Source: Phycisphaerae bacterium
GTDB lineage: Bacteria; Planctomycetota; Phycisphaerae; UBA1845; UTPLA1
Direction of reading: 5' to 3'
Assembly (NCBI GenBank): GCA_016935885.1
Contig: JAFGQA010000042.1
Location: forward strand, 1 to 15,700
DNA length: 15,700 bases
The translations under genes were made by a program, and so were the position numbers. Positions 110 to 14,121 of this stretch are shown piece after piece (position 1 is the stretch's first letter; each line of letters starts with the position of its first letter). Below the pieces are notes generated by a model, which did no database searches, was not told where the DNA came from, and saw nothing but the letters and a program-made list of their open reading frames with translations.

Positions 110-160
110 ATGGTTGTCTCTCGAACAATTCGGACGTAGAATCCGTTGGTACCTACTAGC

Positions 161-255
161 AGCCCGTGGCAAAACTGTGGCACCGGCGTCTCGCCGGTGG
201 TTTCCACGGTCAGGAACGGCGTTTCCGAACCGCTGTTTTCCTTTTACCACGGGCT
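161..255 (-). repeat. 95-bp REP-like element bounded by AGCCCGTGG inverted repeats
   Basis: The ends AGCCCGTGG (161-169) and CCACGGGCT (247-255) are perfect inverted repeats. Inside is a hairpin with arms CACCGGCG (181-188) and CGCCGGTG (192-199) and a TCT loop. The element is the reverse complement of 10366-10461 inside priA. Bases 161-211 match 10411-10461 perfectly over 51 bp, and the rest matches with about seven substitutions and one gap. It is non-coding here and resembles REP or MITE-like DNA, with no transposase nearby. Confidence 0.85.
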
Positions 256-287
256 GCCAGAGGGCGGCCTATGGCGACGCGATGTCC

Positions 288-2812: not shown

Positions 2813-2940
2813 GGGTGGCATGGGTAAGCGGAGCCGCCAACGGCGGCGGAGCTTACCCGTGGGCATCCATTCGAGCCTGTCCTCACGGGTAATGAACGAC
2901 CCGCCCCCGTGGGGCGTGTCGTTCGTTACCCGTGCCACCC
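2813..2940. repeat. 128-bp element with 15-bp inverted-repeat ends
   Basis: GGGTGGCATGGGTAA (2813-2827) and TTACCCGTGCCACCC (2926-2940) are inverted repeats with one mismatch. Bases 2854-2928 match the reverse complement of 9740-9814 at 69 of 75 positions. Internal palindromes include GCCGCCAACGGCGGC near 2833-2847. No coding potential was seen. Confidence 0.75.
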
Positions 2941-9116: not shown

Positions 9117-9224
9117 CGCACGGGCGGCTTGCCGGCCCGTGCGGCTTCTGCGGCGGGCGCATGGGGCATCCACACTGGCAGGCAAGCTGCCAGTGGCACC
9201 GGTACTACAGTTTTGCCACGGGCT
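9117..9224. repeat. Two palindromes and a partial copy of the 96-bp REP-like element
   Basis: CGCACGGGC (9117-9125) pairs with GCCCGTGCG (9135-9143). CACTGGCAG (9173-9181) pairs with CTGCCAGTG (9187-9195). Bases 9199-9224 match 10436-10461 of the priA copy at 24 of 26 positions, including the end CCACGGGCT. The first hairpin lies about 40 bp after the stop of the secreted-protein gene, but no T-tract follows. The block ends 10 bp before the ribosome site of the next gene. Confidence 0.7.
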
Positions 9225-9234
9225 GATGGACCGC

Positions 9235-9246: not shown

Positions 9247-9558
9247 ATGTCTGTCTTGGCTGAATTCTCGATGTCGCCGTTGGGCAAGGGGGAATCGGTT
9301 TCCGAGTATGTGTCGCGGAGCCTGGAGATTGTCGCCGACAGCGGCGTGCCATATCGGCTGGGGCCGATGGGGACGTGTCTGGAGGGCGACTGGGATGAGG
9401 TCTTCGGCGTCATCAAGAAGTGCTACGAGCGGATGGCGCAGGACTGCCGCCGCGTGAGCTGCTCGATCAAGCTGGACATCCGAGAAGGCCACGACGGCCG
9501 GTTGACGAGCAAGATCGAGAAGATCGAAGACGTGCTGGGGCGGGAGCTGCGGCAGTGA
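9247..9558 (+). CDS. MTH1187-type thiamine-binding protein (DUF77/UPF0045)
   Basis: The 103-residue product is the normal length for this small family. It shows the family's N-terminal strand with a serine-proline turn (LAEFSMSPLGKGESVSEYVSRSL), the segment SGVPYRLGPMGTCLEGDWDEVFGVIKKCYE and the closing strand SCSIKLDIREG. Members form ferredoxin-like oligomers that bind thiamine or related ligands, and the physiological role is not settled. The strong GAGGGAGG site supports ATG 9247 and excludes the longer frame from 9082. It appears to be a single-gene unit between repeat blocks, and nothing nearby points to thiamine synthesis or transport. Confidence 0.9.
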   Translation: MSVLAEFSMSPLGKGESVSEYVSRSLEIVADSGVPYRLGPMGTCLEGDWDEVFGVIKKCYERMAQDCRRVSCSIKLDIREGHDGRLTSKIEKIEDVLGRELRQ

Positions 9559-9739: not shown

Positions 9740-9814
9740 TAACGAACGACGCGCCCCACATGGGCGGGTCGTTCATTACCCGTGAGAACAGGCTGGAATG
9801 GATACCCACGGGTA
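9740..9814 (-). repeat. Reverse copy of the core of the 2813-2940 element
   Basis: The reverse complement of 9740-9814 matches 2854-2928 at 69 of 75 positions. The outer inverted-repeat arm next to it (TTACCCGTGCCACCC in the first copy) is not recognisable at 9725-9740, so this copy is partial. It sits about 40 bp before priA. The whole 9559-9853 gap holds no other gene or signal that I could support. Confidence 0.75.
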
Positions 9815-9853: not shown

Positions 9854-12385
9854 ATGGCCAAGCACAGAACGGACCGCGCGACCCCCTCGCTCATCGACCC
9901 GCCCGAACTCCGCACGGCCGGCGTTGCCACGGTCGCCCTGCTCAGGCCCCTCGACAAGCCGTATAGCTATCGCATCCCCGCTGAAATCGAATCGGCCGTT
10001 TCCCCCGGCGTGCGCGTGACCGTGCCGTTCGGCCGCAACGACCGCCCAACCACGGCTTTCTGCTTGTCCGTCAGCGAGCAGCCTTGGGACTCGACGCTGA
10101 AGCCGATCCTGTCTGCCGTGGACGCGTCGCCGTTGCTGAATGACAAGTTGCTCGAACTCGGGCGATGGATCGCCCGCTACTACGCCGCGCCGCTCGGCCG
10201 CACGTTGGACCTGATGGTCCCAGCCGCCGCCAAGCGCCACGCCGGTTGGAAGAAGGTTCGGTATGCGACACTCGTGGCCGACGGACCACAGGAGAGCCGC
10301 GGGCCTCAGCCAGAGCGGCCTTCGAACCACCAAGCCGGCGACAAGCCGGCGGCCGAGGACCTATCAGCCCGTGGCAAAAGGGAGAACGCCGGTTCGGAGA
10401 CGCCGTTCCAGACCGTGGAAACCACCGGCGAGACGCCGGTGCCACAGTTTTGCCACGGGCTGCTATCGCAGCACTGCGGAACCGGCGTCCCGCCTGTGCC
10501 CTCACCGCCGAGACGGCGGTGCCAAAAGGACGGCGGTGCCGCAGGAGATCGTGGGATAGGCGCCAAACAGGCTGCCGTGCTCGCCGCGCTGCGCGATGCC
10601 GGCGGGACGTGCAAAGTAGACGAGTGTGCGAAAGCCGCCGGCTGCGGGCCTGGCGTCATCAGGACGTTGCAGGCCAGTGGTTTCATCACGATCGAGACGC
10701 GCGACGAGCCCATTCCCCCAGGCGACAGCGGCGTCGATCGACATGAGCCCGATTTCGAGCTCAACGCCGACCAGCGAGCGGCCATCGACCAACTCGCCAC
10801 CGAGATCGCCGCCAGACGGTTTTCCGTCCAGGTCCTTTACGGCGTCACCGGCAGCGGCAAGACCGAGTGCTATGTCGCCGCCATGCGCCGGGCGATTGCC
10901 GACGGCCGGCAAGCCATCCTGCTCGTCCCGGAAATCGCCCTGACCACGCAGACCGTCCGTCGCTTGCAGGCCCGATTCGACCGCGTGGCGACCGTGCACA
11001 GCGGCCTGACCGGCGTCGAACGATCCCGCACCTGGGCCGCTATTGCCTCTGGCGACATCTCCGTCGTCATAGGCACGCGGAGCGCCGTCTTCGCCCCCTG
11101 CGCAGACCTTGGCGTCATCATCGTCGACGAGGAGGCCGAATCGAGCTACAAGAACCTCGCCGCGCCGCGATACCACACGCGCGATATCGCCATCAAGCGG
11201 GGGCACTTGGAAGACATCCCGGTTGTGCTCGGTTCGGCCACGCCGTCGCTGGAAACCTGGAAGAACGTCCAGCAACGGGAGCACTATCACCTGCTACGCC
11301 TGCCACATCGCGTTCGAGGCTTGGCCATGCCCACGATGCACCTCGTGGACATGCGTGTCGAACACAAGGCCCGGCGCGGTGTCCACCTGCTGTCCCGCGC
11401 AATGGAGTGGCACCTTGAGCGCGTCCTCGACCGCGGCGAACAGGCAGTCCTGCTGCTCAACCGCCGGGGCTACGCCAACTTCCTGCACTGTCCACGGTGT
11501 CAAACCGTGGTCACCTGCCCGCACTGTAGTGTCCACATGGTCTTCCATGCCACGACGGGATTGGCCCACTGTCATTACTGCCACGCCCGCCTGGCCGTGC
11601 CGAACAAATGCCAAATGGCCGGCTGCGGTGGCAACCTCGTCCGCTTCGGCATCGGCACACAGCGCGTCGAGGCCGAGATCCGCGAGAAGTTCCCGGCGGC
11701 CCGGCTCCGCCGCGTCGACTCGGACGTCATGCAGCGCGCTGCCGACTACGCCGACGTGCTGGGCGCGTTCGAGCGCAAGGAATTCGACATCCTCGTCGGC
11801 ACGCAGATGATCGCGAAGGGCCTGGACTTTCCGTTCGTGTCATTCGTCGGCGTGGTCAGTGCTGACACGGCGCTGGCACTCGACGACTTCCGCTCCGAGG
11901 AGCGGACCTTCCAGCTCGTGTTGCAGGTTGCCGGCCGAAGCGGTCGCGGCGACGTTGGCGGCCACGTCGTTGTGCAGACGTTTGCAGCCGATACGGCCCC
12001 CATTCGGCACGCGGTCGCCGGCGACTACGAGGGCTTCGCGAAGACGGAACTCGCCAACCGCCGCCGGGCCAAGCTCCCGCCATACACCCGCATGGTCCGC
12101 ATCGTCCTGTCGGACCCGAGGATGACCCGGCTGCGAGACGCCGCCGCGAAGCTGGCCCGAGCCATCCAAGACGCCCTGCGAAAGCGCGGCATCCAGGCCA
12201 CGGTCTTCGGCCCCCATCCCGCAGCCATTGCCCGTCTGAAAGACATGTACCGCTACGACATCCTCCTTGTTTTTCCCGCGCCCGCCGACCTTCTGTCGGC
12301 GATCGACCTCTTCAAGTCCGAAGGCACTTTGAAGACCGGCGCAAGAAGCCTGACCGTTGATGTGGACCCCGTGTCCTTGCAGTAG
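9854..12385 (+). CDS. priA: Primosomal replication-restart helicase PriA with repeat-derived insertion
   Basis: The 843-residue product is longer than the usual 730-750. The N-terminal DNA-binding domain includes ATVALLRPLDKPYSYRIP and PGVRVTVPFGRN, and the winged helix follows an insert (about residues 144-229). Helicase motifs are Walker A GVTGSGKT (330-337), DEEAES (425-430), GSATPSLETW and the C-terminal GTQMIAKGLDFPFV plus QVAGRSGRG. Eight zinc-binding cysteines lie at 546, 549, 555, 558, 573, 576, 586 and 591. PriA unwinds forks after collapse and recruits the primosome. The insert is made of palindromic repeat copies (10291-10316, 10366-10461 and more to about 10540), all read in frame between domains, so activity may survive. 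ATG 9854 has no clear ribosome site and gives about 20 residues before the usual start of homology. Confidence 0.96.
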   Translation: MAKHRTDRATPSLIDPPELRTAGVATVALLRPLDKPYSYRIPAEIESAVSPGVRVTVPFGRNDRPTTAFCLSVSEQPWDSTLKPILSAVDASPLLNDKLLELGRWIARYYAAPLGRTLDLMVPAAAKRHAGWKKVRYATLVADGPQESRGPQPERPSNHQAGDKPAAEDLSARGKRENAGSETPFQTVETTGETPVPQFCHGLLSQHCGTGVPPVPSPPRRRCQKDGGAAGDRGIGAKQAAVLAALRDAGGTCKVDECAKAAGCGPGVIRTLQASGFITIETRDEPIPPGDSGVDRHEPDFELNADQRAAIDQLATEIAARRFSVQVLYGVTGSGKTECYVAAMRRAIADGRQAILLVPEIALTTQTVRRLQARFDRVATVHSGLTGVERSRTWAAIASGDISVVIGTRSAVFAPCADLGVIIVDEEAESSYKNLAAPRYHTRDIAIKRGHLEDIPVVLGSATPSLETWKNVQQREHYHLLRLPHRVRGLAMPTMHLVDMRVEHKARRGVHLLSRAMEWHLERVLDRGEQAVLLLNRRGYANFLHCPRCQTVVTCPHCSVHMVFHATTGLAHCHYCHARLAVPNKCQMAGCGGNLVRFGIGTQRVEAEIREKFPAARLRRVDSDVMQRAADYADVLGAFERKEFDILVGTQMIAKGLDFPFVSFVGVVSADTALALDDFRSEERTFQLVLQVAGRSGRGDVGGHVVVQTFAADTAPIRHAVAGDYEGFAKTELANRRRAKLPPYTRMVRIVLSDPRMTRLRDAAAKLARAIQDALRKRGIQATVFGPHPAAIARLKDMYRYDILLVFPAPADLLSAIDLFKSEGTLKTGARSLTVDVDPVSLQ
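10291..10540. repeat. Block of palindromic repeats inside priA, kept in frame
   Basis: Three repeat copies occur in order. The first is a reverse CACGGGCT-type unit at 10291-10316. The second is the 96-bp element at 10366-10461, with AGCCCGTGG/CCACGGGCT ends and a CACCGGCG-AGA-CGCCGGTG hairpin at 10423-10441. The third is a stretch with ACCGCCG (10504-10510) pairing with CGGCGGT (10514-10520). The translated segment is rich in Pro, Gly, Thr and Arg and includes TGETPVPQFCHG and GTGVPPVP. It carries no stop codon and shifts no frame. Confidence 0.85.
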
Positions 12386-12678: not shown

Positions 12679-14121
12679 ATGAGCGATTCGGCGTGCGAGG
12701 CGTGTTCGGTTCTGACCGACGCCCAGGCGAAGATGGAGGCGTCGCGCTGTCTGATGTGCGACGATCCGCCGTGCGTGAAGGCGTGCCCGGCGGCGGTGCC
12801 TGTGAAGCATTTCATCAGGGCGATCCGGTTCGATTCGCCCAGGCGGGCCATCAACCTGATTCGAGATCGCAACGTGTTTGCCGGCGTGTGCGGGCTGGCG
12901 TGCCCGGTCGAGGAGCTGTGCGTGGGGGCGTGCACGAGCACGGAGCTGAGCACGCCTATCGCCATCGGCAGGTTGCAGCACTACGCGGCGGTGAAGGAGC
13001 TTGAATCGGGACGCGGGCGCGTAGCGGTCGTTGGCGGGGGGCGGTCGGGAACGACGAGTGGACGTAGGGGCCTCTCCGAAGACTGTGGCAGCGAGGCCAA
13101 GGCTGGTGTTCGTCACAGGCGAGACGCCCGTGCCGCGGGGGGGCGTGCGACAGGTTCCAAGGTGGCCGTCATCGGTGGGGGGCCGTCGGGTCTGGCGGCG
13201 GCGGCGGAACTCGCCCGGCTCGGCCACAAGCCAACGGTATTCGAGAAGCGCAGGCGGCTCGGTGGGATATGCACGTATGCGGTGCCGGGGCATCGGCTGC
13301 CGCAGGAACTCGTGGCGAGCGAGATCGAGTGCATCGAGAGCCTGGGCGTGGAGATTAAGACGAGTGTGGCATTTGGGCGTGGACAAACGGTCGACGATTT
13401 GTTCGCGGCGGGTTACACGGCGGTGTACGTTTCGACCGGCTTGCAGGAGGCCGCGACGCCGCGCGTGCCCGGTGAAGGGCTCGAGGGTGTCACGACGTGG
13501 AAGGCATTGCTGGAGGGCTTCGCCGCATCTCGGCTGGGTGAGGGTGACGAACCGCCGATGACCCGAGATGTGATCGTGGTTGGCGGCGGCAGTGTGGCCA
13601 TGGACGTGGCCGGCGTGGCGAGGCAGTTGGGCGCCGAAGAGATTGATATCGTGTGCCTGGAGGCCCCCAATGAGATGCCGGCGGACGAGAGGGAACTGCA
13701 TGAGGTGTGGGACGAAGGCGTTCGGTTTCACACGCGGTCGATGCCACTGGAAATCACCGGGCAATCCGGGAGGGTCACGGGACTGAGGGCGGTGCGGATT
13801 CGGTGGAAGGAGCCAGACAAGTTCGTGCCGTCGAACGCGGAGCAAATCGAGGGCACCGAGTACTGGCTGCCCGGTTCGATGGTGGTGTTTGCCATCGGCG
13901 CGCGGCCGTCTGCGGGATTGAACGAGGCTTTGCCAGGCGTCGAGTTCGACCATGCAGGACGGATCGTCGTCGACGCGGAAACTGGGGCGACGTCGCGCGA
14001 GGGTGTCTATGCCGGCGGCGACGCAGTCTCGGGTGGCGGCGCGACGATCGTCAAGGCAGTGGCGGAGGGCAAGCGCGCGGGGGCGGCGATGGCGGCGTAT
14101 CTCGTGAAGCGTCCTTCGTGA
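12679..14121 (+). CDS. preT: NAD-dependent dihydropyrimidine dehydrogenase subunit PreT, with an internal insertion
   Basis: PreT is the flavin and NADH-binding subunit. With PreA it reduces uracil or thymine to the dihydro form, the first step of reductive pyrimidine breakdown. The 480 residues start with a GltD-like iron-sulphur domain (Cys 24, 27, 32, 36, 71, 75, 81 and 85). The FAD motif VAVIGGGPSGLAAA follows at 162-175, then the NAD motif VIVVGGGSVAMDVAG near 298-312 and GVYAGGDAVSGGGATIVKAVAEGK near the end. E. coli PreT has about 412 residues. The excess comes mainly from a 47-codon unit at about 115-161, in which a first glycine motif (VAVVGGGRSG, 115-124) precedes repeat-like sequence. 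FAD binding presumably relies on the second copy, which continues into normal sequence. AGGGGA before ATG 12679 supports the start. preA follows 93 bp later. Confidence 0.92.
   Translation: MSDSACEACSVLTDAQAKMEASRCLMCDDPPCVKACPAAVPVKHFIRAIRFDSPRRAINLIRDRNVFAGVCGLACPVEELCVGACTSTELSTPIAIGRLQHYAAVKELESGRGRVAVVGGGRSGTTSGRRGLSEDCGSEAKAGVRHRRDARAAGGRATGSKVAVIGGGPSGLAAAAELARLGHKPTVFEKRRRLGGICTYAVPGHRLPQELVASEIECIESLGVEIKTSVAFGRGQTVDDLFAAGYTAVYVSTGLQEAATPRVPGEGLEGVTTWKALLEGFAASRLGEGDEPPMTRDVIVVGGGSVAMDVAGVARQLGAEEIDIVCLEAPNEMPADERELHEVWDEGVRFHTRSMPLEITGQSGRVTGLRAVRIRWKEPDKFVPSNAEQIEGTEYWLPGSMVVFAIGARPSAGLNEALPGVEFDHAGRIVVDAETGATSREGVYAGGDAVSGGGATIVKAVAEGKRAGAAMAAYLVKRPS
13084..13140. repeat. Decayed REP-like sequence inside preT
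   Basis: Bases 13111-13138 read as a variant of the GGCGAGACGCC...GTGCC core of the priA element, and one of the other frames translates to FVTGETPVPRGG, close to ETTGETPVPQ from the priA insert. It lies between the two copies of the FAD glycine motif of PreT. Its stem has lost perfect pairing. Confidence 0.55.

What the first reader, a model, noticed from the sequence alone, without database searches (positions are those of the whole stretch)
10283..10545. REP-like repeats inserted in frame in the essential helicase PriA
About 85 residues of PriA, between the N-terminal DNA-binding domain and the winged helix, are encoded by three consecutive palindromic repeat copies. The reading frame is kept and all helicase and zinc motifs remain. 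Mobile palindromic DNA seems to have created new protein sequence (TGETPVPQFCHG and similar) in a conserved gene, tolerated because it falls at a domain linker.
Basis: partly seen in the sequence, partly recalled or inferred. Interest (0 to 1): 0.75.

Follow-up and report, generated by a model that had tools for sequence, protein, structure and literature searches.

The report
Mobile palindromic DNA inside PriA gene
A small mobile DNA hairpin sits inside a bacterial replication-restart gene without breaking its reading frame and adds a floppy stretch of new protein at a domain junction; related DNA, and even a whole transposase, turns up in frame inside other core genes of such bacteria.

Summary
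The insert is real. PriA (9854-12385, 843 aa) carries a 104-nt element at 10362-10465 with terminal inverted repeats ending in TA; the net gain is 102 nt, codons 171-204. It matches window 157-259 (93%) and at least 51 places in a relative's genome, G001. A pair of short inverted REP-like hairpins follows (10481-10520). The first part (10283-10361) is ordinary linker, so about 65 residues, not 85, are repeat-derived. Close relatives lack the insert (P0003, P0004; the latter 71 codons shorter); P0002, from another contig, has exactly one 34-residue unit. PriA looks functional (123 of 123 invariant residues kept; dN/dS about 0.14), and AlphaFold2 leaves residues 146-232 unfolded between the 3'-binding and winged-helix domains. 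A second gene of the window has a 38-residue in-frame insert with a REP core. This works like the protein-coding palindromes of Rickettsia and intragenic REPs: a new variant of a known kind. Following the family led to something I did not find in print: REP transposase (RAYT) domains in frame in IleRS, ValRS, AlaRS, RecG, PurH and some other PriAs; 60 of 60 aligned cores keep the HUH motif.

The parts
9854..12385 (+). priA, primosomal protein N' (843 aa), intact
   Evidence: 123 of 123 columns invariant in 63 other PriAs are kept
10289..10549 (+). codons 146-232, predicted disordered linker
   Evidence: pLDDT below 50 and no secondary structure
10283..10361 (+). ordinary variable linker, not repeat
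   Evidence: 11 of 200 shuffles match as well; counterpart in P0002, P0003
10362..10465 (+). 104-nt TA-ended element; net insert 10364-10465 = codons 171-204
   Evidence: exactly 34 residues longer linker in P0002 than in P0003
10362..10379 (+). left terminal inverted repeat TATCAGCCCGTGGCAAAA
10448..10465 (+). right terminal inverted repeat TTTTGCCACGGGCTGCTA
10424..10440 (+). REP-like hairpin core inside the element
   Evidence: 8-bp stem in the predicted fold
10481..10497 (-). first core of the inverted REP pair
10504..10520 (+). second core of the inverted REP pair, with a compensatory G-C to C-G change in the stem
157..259 (-). other copy of the element in the window, outside the listed ORFs of 80 aa or more (ORFs open at the ends were not listed)
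   Evidence: 93% over 101 nt
13006..13138 (+). in-frame insert (net 114 nt, 38 codons) with a REP core at 13115-13131 in the Fer4_20/Pyr_redox_2 gene 12679-14121
   Evidence: absent from the G001 homologue (133 nt against 19 nt)

Best explanation
A non-autonomous mobile element (a MITE-like, TA-ended palindrome of 104 nt that carries a REP-like hairpin) inserted at the TA of a CTA leucine codon in the linker between the 3'-DNA-binding domain and the winged helix of PriA. With TA present on both sides the net gain is 102 nt, 34 codons, so the frame is kept, and this copy is stop-free in the frame used. An inverted pair of REP hairpins entered just downstream and added about 31 more codons. The new peptide is disordered and lies outside the folded domains, so PriA stayed functional and selection did not remove it. 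Shown: the element, its copies, the frame, the exact 34-codon difference, its absence in relatives, intact domains, predicted disorder. Inferred: that TA is a target-site duplication, the order of the two events, near-neutrality, and which enzyme moved the DNA.
For: Element and copies. Relatives: (L001 aligns at 77-78% DNA identity on both sides and its PriA is 71 codons shorter). Independent carrier P0002. Separate event: P0011 has a TGETPVP peptide in the same linker that P0010, 93.3% identical outside it, lacks. Frame-compatible design: 17 of 20 hairpin-bearing units have a net length divisible by 3 and the PriA frame is stop-free in 17 of 19 units of 103-140 nt (related copies, not independent). 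Same peptide in frame in other proteins: P0121, P0122 and ORFs of G001. Function kept.
Against: P0001 and P0002 are not clearly sisters: among P0001-P0004 the order is unresolved, and a P0001+P0002 clade is 6.57 log units worse, p-AU 0.054. So one insertion (then lost in P0003 and P0004) and two insertions at the same place cannot be told apart. No DNA of an empty TA site was seen; the L001 counterpart reads CTC. No cognate transposase with these ends was found, and none was searched for beyond the IS200-like family. The window's own genome is not held.
Confidence: 0.85

Rival explanations
1. The insert was kept because it does something, for instance as a flexible tether or as an mRNA hairpin that slows translation between two domains.
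For: The element folds strongly as RNA (-55.8 kcal/mol, shuffles -35.3, z -5.8, none of 200 as good) and lies exactly between two domains.
Against: The same hairpin is found at many other places of G001 and in unrelated proteins; relatives do without it; strong folding is expected of any palindrome.
Confidence: 0.08
2. priA is a decaying pseudogene here and its open frame is an accident of high G+C.
For: High G+C makes chance open frames long (73 ORFs of 80 aa or more in the window); a second priA copy could not be looked for because the genome is not held.
Against: No deviation at 123 invariant columns; differences from L001 by codon position are 104, 77 and 333 over 742 codons.
Confidence: 0.03
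3. Assembly error joined repeat DNA into priA.
For: Repeats break metagenome assemblies; several G001 contigs begin inside such repeats.
Against: P0002, from another source, has the same unit, length and phase; an error would seldom keep the frame through two repeats.
Confidence: 0.03

Closest known systems
Rickettsia palindromic elements (RPE); passages of PMC2229807 and PMC10969869 seen, the original papers not held or not read
   Same: About 100-150 bp palindromic element with inverted ends, open reading frame, found in frame in unrelated conserved genes as well as between genes; some RPEs have TA at both ends (PMC2229807)
   Different: Other phylum; interior is a REP-like hairpin; sequence kinship to RPE was not tested
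Intragenic REPs (GTAG/CGTC-tagged), PMC3733652: abstract, section 15 and passages seen
   Same: Short hairpin cores, single or as inverted pairs, inside ORFs, many of them repair genes and some tRNA synthetases
   Different: PriA is not named in the main text (0 occurrences; supplements not seen); no GTAG or CGTC tag was established here; the main unit is TIR-bounded and about three times longer
Bacterial MITEs with TA ends (Correia/NEMIS, RUP, ERIC), PMC2229807 passages
   Same: Terminal inverted repeats, TA ends, several size classes with common ends; the 107-bp Correia form is open and intragenic while the 155-bp form is closed, much as the hairpin-bearing classes here are open and keep the frame while the 144-nt class changes it
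   Different: No parent transposon known; ends unlike any named family that I recall (no comparison run)
RAYT / TnpA_REP REPtrons, PMC6006769 and PMC3733652 passages
   Same: HUH and Y..NP motifs; inverted REP cores flank the RAYT in G001 IleRS
   Different: Known RAYTs are taken as free-standing genes (subclass medians 148-325 aa); [quoted passage not shown] Here they lie in frame in core enzymes

Membership tests
MITE | terminal inverted repeats, short, no transposase gene | tested here: met
   39 TIR-bounded units of 53-167 nt among the loci held, 2 in the window; 18 regions had been fetched because they showed such pairs or neighbours
MITE | target-site duplication (TA) | tested here: inconclusive
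   TA at both ends in 29 of 39 units (left 32, right 33); net 102 nt in P0002 fits; no empty site seen
MITE | autonomous parent with the same ends | not tested
   only IS200-like transposases were searched in G001
REP | short multi-copy hairpin with covarying stem, often in inverted pairs | tested here: met
   216+241 places in G001, control 0+0; every exact match in the listing that I read keeps the stem paired as G..C or C..G; inverted neighbours such as C1:1417(-)/1444(+)
REP | GTAG or CGTC tag at one end | tested here: inconclusive
   flanks of cores printed show no clear tag; not analysed systematically
REP | RAYT gene flanked by the repeat | tested here: met
   one case: cores at L026 1297-1313 (-) and 1823-1839 (+) around the RAYT, a variant core. 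Of eight RAYT loci L022-L029, L024, L025 and L028 show no core or TIR, and matches in L022, L027 and L029 are single, degenerate or doubtful
RPE-type protein-coding palindrome | in frame inside several unrelated genes | tested here: met
   PriA, P0121, P0122, and inside DUF58 (L009), GT87 (L087) and FabA-type (L063) ORFs of G001
RPE proper | sequence kinship with a named RPE family | not tested
   no RPE sequence was fetched
PriA | 3'BD, helicase lobes, zinc region, C-terminal domain | tested here: met
   the Zn-ribbon model scores 24.7, just under its cut-off of 26, but the cysteines are among the invariant columns kept
RAYT (guests in other genes) | HUH motif and catalytic Tyr | tested here: met
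   HUH in 60 of 60 aligned cores; strict Y[IVL]..N[PA] in 56 of 60, three more show a Tyr there by eye, P0181 does not

The most novel reading that the evidence does not exclude
REP transposons of Planctomycetota and Verrucomicrobiota live as in-frame guests inside loops of core proteins, intein-like but with no sign of splicing: the stop-free RAYT gene with flanking REPs is translated as part of IleRS (two sites), ValRS, AlaRS, RecG, PurH, GcvP, MetH or PriA, keeps its catalytic residues, and is shielded from nonsense and frameshift loss by the host gene. The PriA insert of the window is the small, non-autonomous form of the same lifestyle.
Probability: 0.45. Interest if true: 0.87.

Novelty: new variant of a known kind. 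Interest (0 to 1): 0.62.

Why it matters
It extends protein-coding mobile palindromes, best known from Rickettsia, to the Phycisphaerae branch of Planctomycetota, with a clear case in a replication-restart helicase and a natural experiment: the same linker with no unit, one unit, or one unit plus a REP pair. The RAYT fusions reached from it would, if confirmed, show a transposase persisting inside indispensable enzymes, which would make the question of how RAYTs persist testable.

Tried and rejected
Three consecutive copies: rejected. Left part 10283-10361 as repeat: rejected (11 of 200 shuffles as good). P0001 and P0002 as clean sisters sharing one insertion: not supported. The group table shows one change only because rows without a label were not counted; its drawn tree puts P0002 with P0003 and P0004 at 90/53.

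Frame count: wrong for the hairpin classes, because my orientation test let both strands match; redone, whose numbers are used. In it the PriA frame is stop-free in 6 of 8 units of 103-110 nt (the window's own copy at 157-259 and L004 are not) and in 11 of 11 of 134-140 nt.

Vertical descent of the RAYT with IleRS: not shown. Identities correlate weakly (rho 0.39, p 0.08 for site 1; 0.29, p 0.03 for site 2) and the two sites are mixed on the RAYT tree (5 changes each). RAYT is more conserved than IleRS at site 1 (0.72 against 0.61) but not at site 2 (0.67 against 0.66), and RAYTs from different sites are as alike (0.69) as those from one site.

Open frames around RAYTs in G137 and G264 were plain upstream read-through, and L138 (G078, open frame 529) gave no ORF by my motif. 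Of 30 element- or core-spanning ORFs of G001 that I chose for Pfam, 8 had a hit; in three of these (SRP54-type GTPase tail L067, S8 peptidase N-part L069, VWA N-part L076) the element lies near an end and may be outside the true gene. Shorter spanning ORFs were not scanned.

The element outside G001: in its family 7 of 17 genomes match at E <= 1e-3, six of them only over the short core; in 198 genomes of the class only G001 matched at 1e-8, with at most 4 candidates scored per genome.

Literature: six searches on coding palindromes, Planctomycetes, REP or MITE and four on RAYT with other genes or fusions showed nothing on PriA inserts or on RAYTs in essential enzymes in their listings. bioRxiv and subscription journals are not in that library, and supplements could not be read.

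Full report
What is there. The ORF 9854-12385 (+) encodes an 843-aa PriA with the PriA domains and matches solved PriA structures on both sides of a gap (query residues 22-125 and 301-818). Read codon by codon, residue 170 is Leu, CTA at 10361-10363; the TA of that codon is the left end of a 104-nt element that runs to CTGCTA at 10465. The 102 nt of 10364-10465 are exactly codons 171-204. The ends are 18-nt inverted repeats, TATCAGCCCGTGGCAAAA and TTTTGCCACGGGCTGCTA (one mismatch), and the inside holds the hairpin ACCGGCGAGACGCCGGT. Downstream, codons 205-236 hold two further cores in inverted order, the second with a compensatory change in the stem.

Is it more than chance? Against the rest of the window the element scores 148 bits; 200 dinucleotide shuffles reach at most 29.2. 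The REP pair scores 32.8 against a shuffle maximum of 31.0. The other copy, 157-259, lies outside the listed ORFs.

Is it mobile? The window's own genome is not held. A relative, MAG CSMAG_386 (L001, handle G001), whose PriA is 80% identical outside the linker, has 51 matches to the element, a lower bound since 40 of 460 candidates were scored. Its TIR pattern occurs 81+83 times with up to 3 mismatches (reversed control 4+5), the hairpin core 216+241 times with up to 2 (control 0+0). Among the loci held there are 39 TIR-bounded units (37 in G001, 2 in the window) of 53 to 167 nt, 29 of them with TA at both ends: one set of ends, several interiors, as in MITEs. The set is not random, since 18 regions were fetched for showing such ends. 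Units with the hairpin translate in the PriA frame to much the same peptide, AARGKRENSGSETPF..TTGETPVPQFCHGLL; that frame is stop-free in 17 of 19 units of 103-140 nt, and 17 of 20 hairpin units have a net length divisible by 3, whereas 12 of 14 units of 143-144 nt, which lack the hairpin, do not. These copies are related, so the counts are not independent.

Is the insert absent in relatives? Yes. L001 aligns at 77-78% DNA identity on both sides and its PriA is 71 codons shorter. P0003 and P0004 (the latter is the L001 protein by length and identity) lack it; P0002, from another contig, carries one 34-residue unit and no REP pair. The four branch in unresolved order, so one event with losses and two events cannot be told apart. 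P0011 has a TGETPVP peptide in the same linker that P0010, 93.3% identical outside it, lacks. Some other homologues have repeat-looking peptides of other kinds there (P0015, P0033, P0034); that is my reading, not tested.

Is PriA still working? The window's PriA deviates at none of 123 columns invariant in 63 other PriAs. Against L001, differences by codon position are 104, 77, 333 over 742 codons outside the linker; pN 0.123, pS 0.545, dN/dS about 0.14. AlphaFold2 (64 rows, mean pLDDT 83.1) leaves residues 146-232 below 50 without secondary structure and folds both neighbours well. The insert is most likely a tolerated disordered loop.

Is PriA special? No. A search with residues 168-232 alone (48 candidates) gave the window's PriA and two other proteins with the same peptide in frame: a TrmE/MnmE-like GTPase (P0121) and an HDOD/histidine-kinase protein (P0122). 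Of 30 chosen ORFs spanning copies or cores in G001, 8 have Pfam hits. In DUF58 (L009, 110-nt copy), GT87 (L087), a FabA-type protein (L063, 167-nt copy) and, with REP cores only, an SNF2 helicase (L084), the repeat is inside the gene. In the window itself the Fer4_20/Pyr_redox_2 gene (12679-14121) has 133 nt where the G001 homologue, 84% identical upstream and 70% downstream, has 19: net 38 codons at the domain junction, with a degenerate core.

Where the trail led. A Y1_Tnp (RAYT) hit in G001 lies inside an isoleucyl-tRNA synthetase ORF with an open frame of 1385 codons, flanked by inverted REP cores. A search with that RAYT segment, limited by the tool to proteins 0.55-1.75 times the query's length, gave 61 proteins among 356 candidates, one of them G001's own. 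Host genes, named from the listed Pfam accessions and by reading (recall): IleRS 20 (two sites), RecG 12, AlaRS 5, PurH 5, ValRS 4, PriA 4, a DUF1156-type group 4 (three near-identical), MetH 2, ThrRS-like 2, DnaK 1, ThiE 1, one unassigned (P0183). In a few (P0144, P0153, P0156, P0158, P0173) the RAYT is near the N-terminus of a possibly cut sequence, and in P0182 at the C-terminus, so 'inside' is not shown for every one. In 60 of 60 aligned cores (P0183 left out) the HUH motif is kept, the strict Tyr motif in 56. RAYTs group by host gene on their tree (19 changes, shuffled mean 42.4) and the four PriA guests are one clade. In those four PriAs, one named Verrucomicrobiota, the RAYT sits just before the Walker A motif, not in the linker studied here. 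Among the 17 genomes of G001's family: IleRS in G001, G004 and G013, PurH in G006, GcvP in G013 (names by reading). In a sample of 392 genomes of the phylum, 14 RAYTs of this subfamily were found at E <= 1e-25 in 12 genomes; three (G001, G320, G336) are inside synthetases.

How it compares. In-frame palindromes are known: RPEs in Rickettsia genes (19 reading frames in the account of PMC2229807; also PMC10969869; passages seen) and intragenic REPs in many species, with many repair genes and some tRNA synthetases (PMC3733652, section 15 read). The PriA insert works like these and is a new variant: a MITE-like unit with a REP-like heart, another phylum, another target. RAYT guests in core enzymes did not appear in my searches; PMC6006769 mentions long RAYT proteins only as discarded fusions or annotation errors.

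Noticed in passing
L026 427-3201 (G001:C438); proteins P0123-P0183: RAYT (Y1_Tnp) domains in frame in IleRS, ValRS, AlaRS, RecG, PurH, MetH, PriA and others, with REP-like peptides on both sides in many; in G001 IleRS inverted REP cores flank it.
   Followed up: partly
window 13006-13138: Second in-frame insert in the window: 38 codons with a degenerate REP core between the Fer4_20 and Pyr_redox domains, absent from the G001 homologue.
   Followed up: yes
window 2854-2928 and 9740-9814: Another inverted repeat pair of 75 nt, 92% complementary, holding the palindrome TAATGAACGACCCGCC..GTTCGTTACC; a different repeat family of this genome.
   Followed up: no
L140-L157 (G001): A 144-nt TIR family with the same ends but another interior (TGTAGCGGCCGACCCCCGTGTCGGCC), plus 53-nt and 91-nt forms; 12 of 14 units of 143-144 nt would shift a reading frame.
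   Followed up: partly
window 9199-9228: A right-end piece of the element, 27 nt at 93%, just upstream of a small ORF (9247-9558).
   Followed up: no
L084 507-4001 (-), G001: SNF2 helicase with a long stretch of REP-like and other low-complexity sequence between the ATP-binding motif and the next helicase motif.
   Followed up: no
PriA linkers of P0010, P0015, P0033, P0034: Other repeat-looking peptides (NPQSAI, NSKLET, IPNSAFRIPNS) at the same linker; it may take up several kinds of repeat DNA.
   Followed up: no
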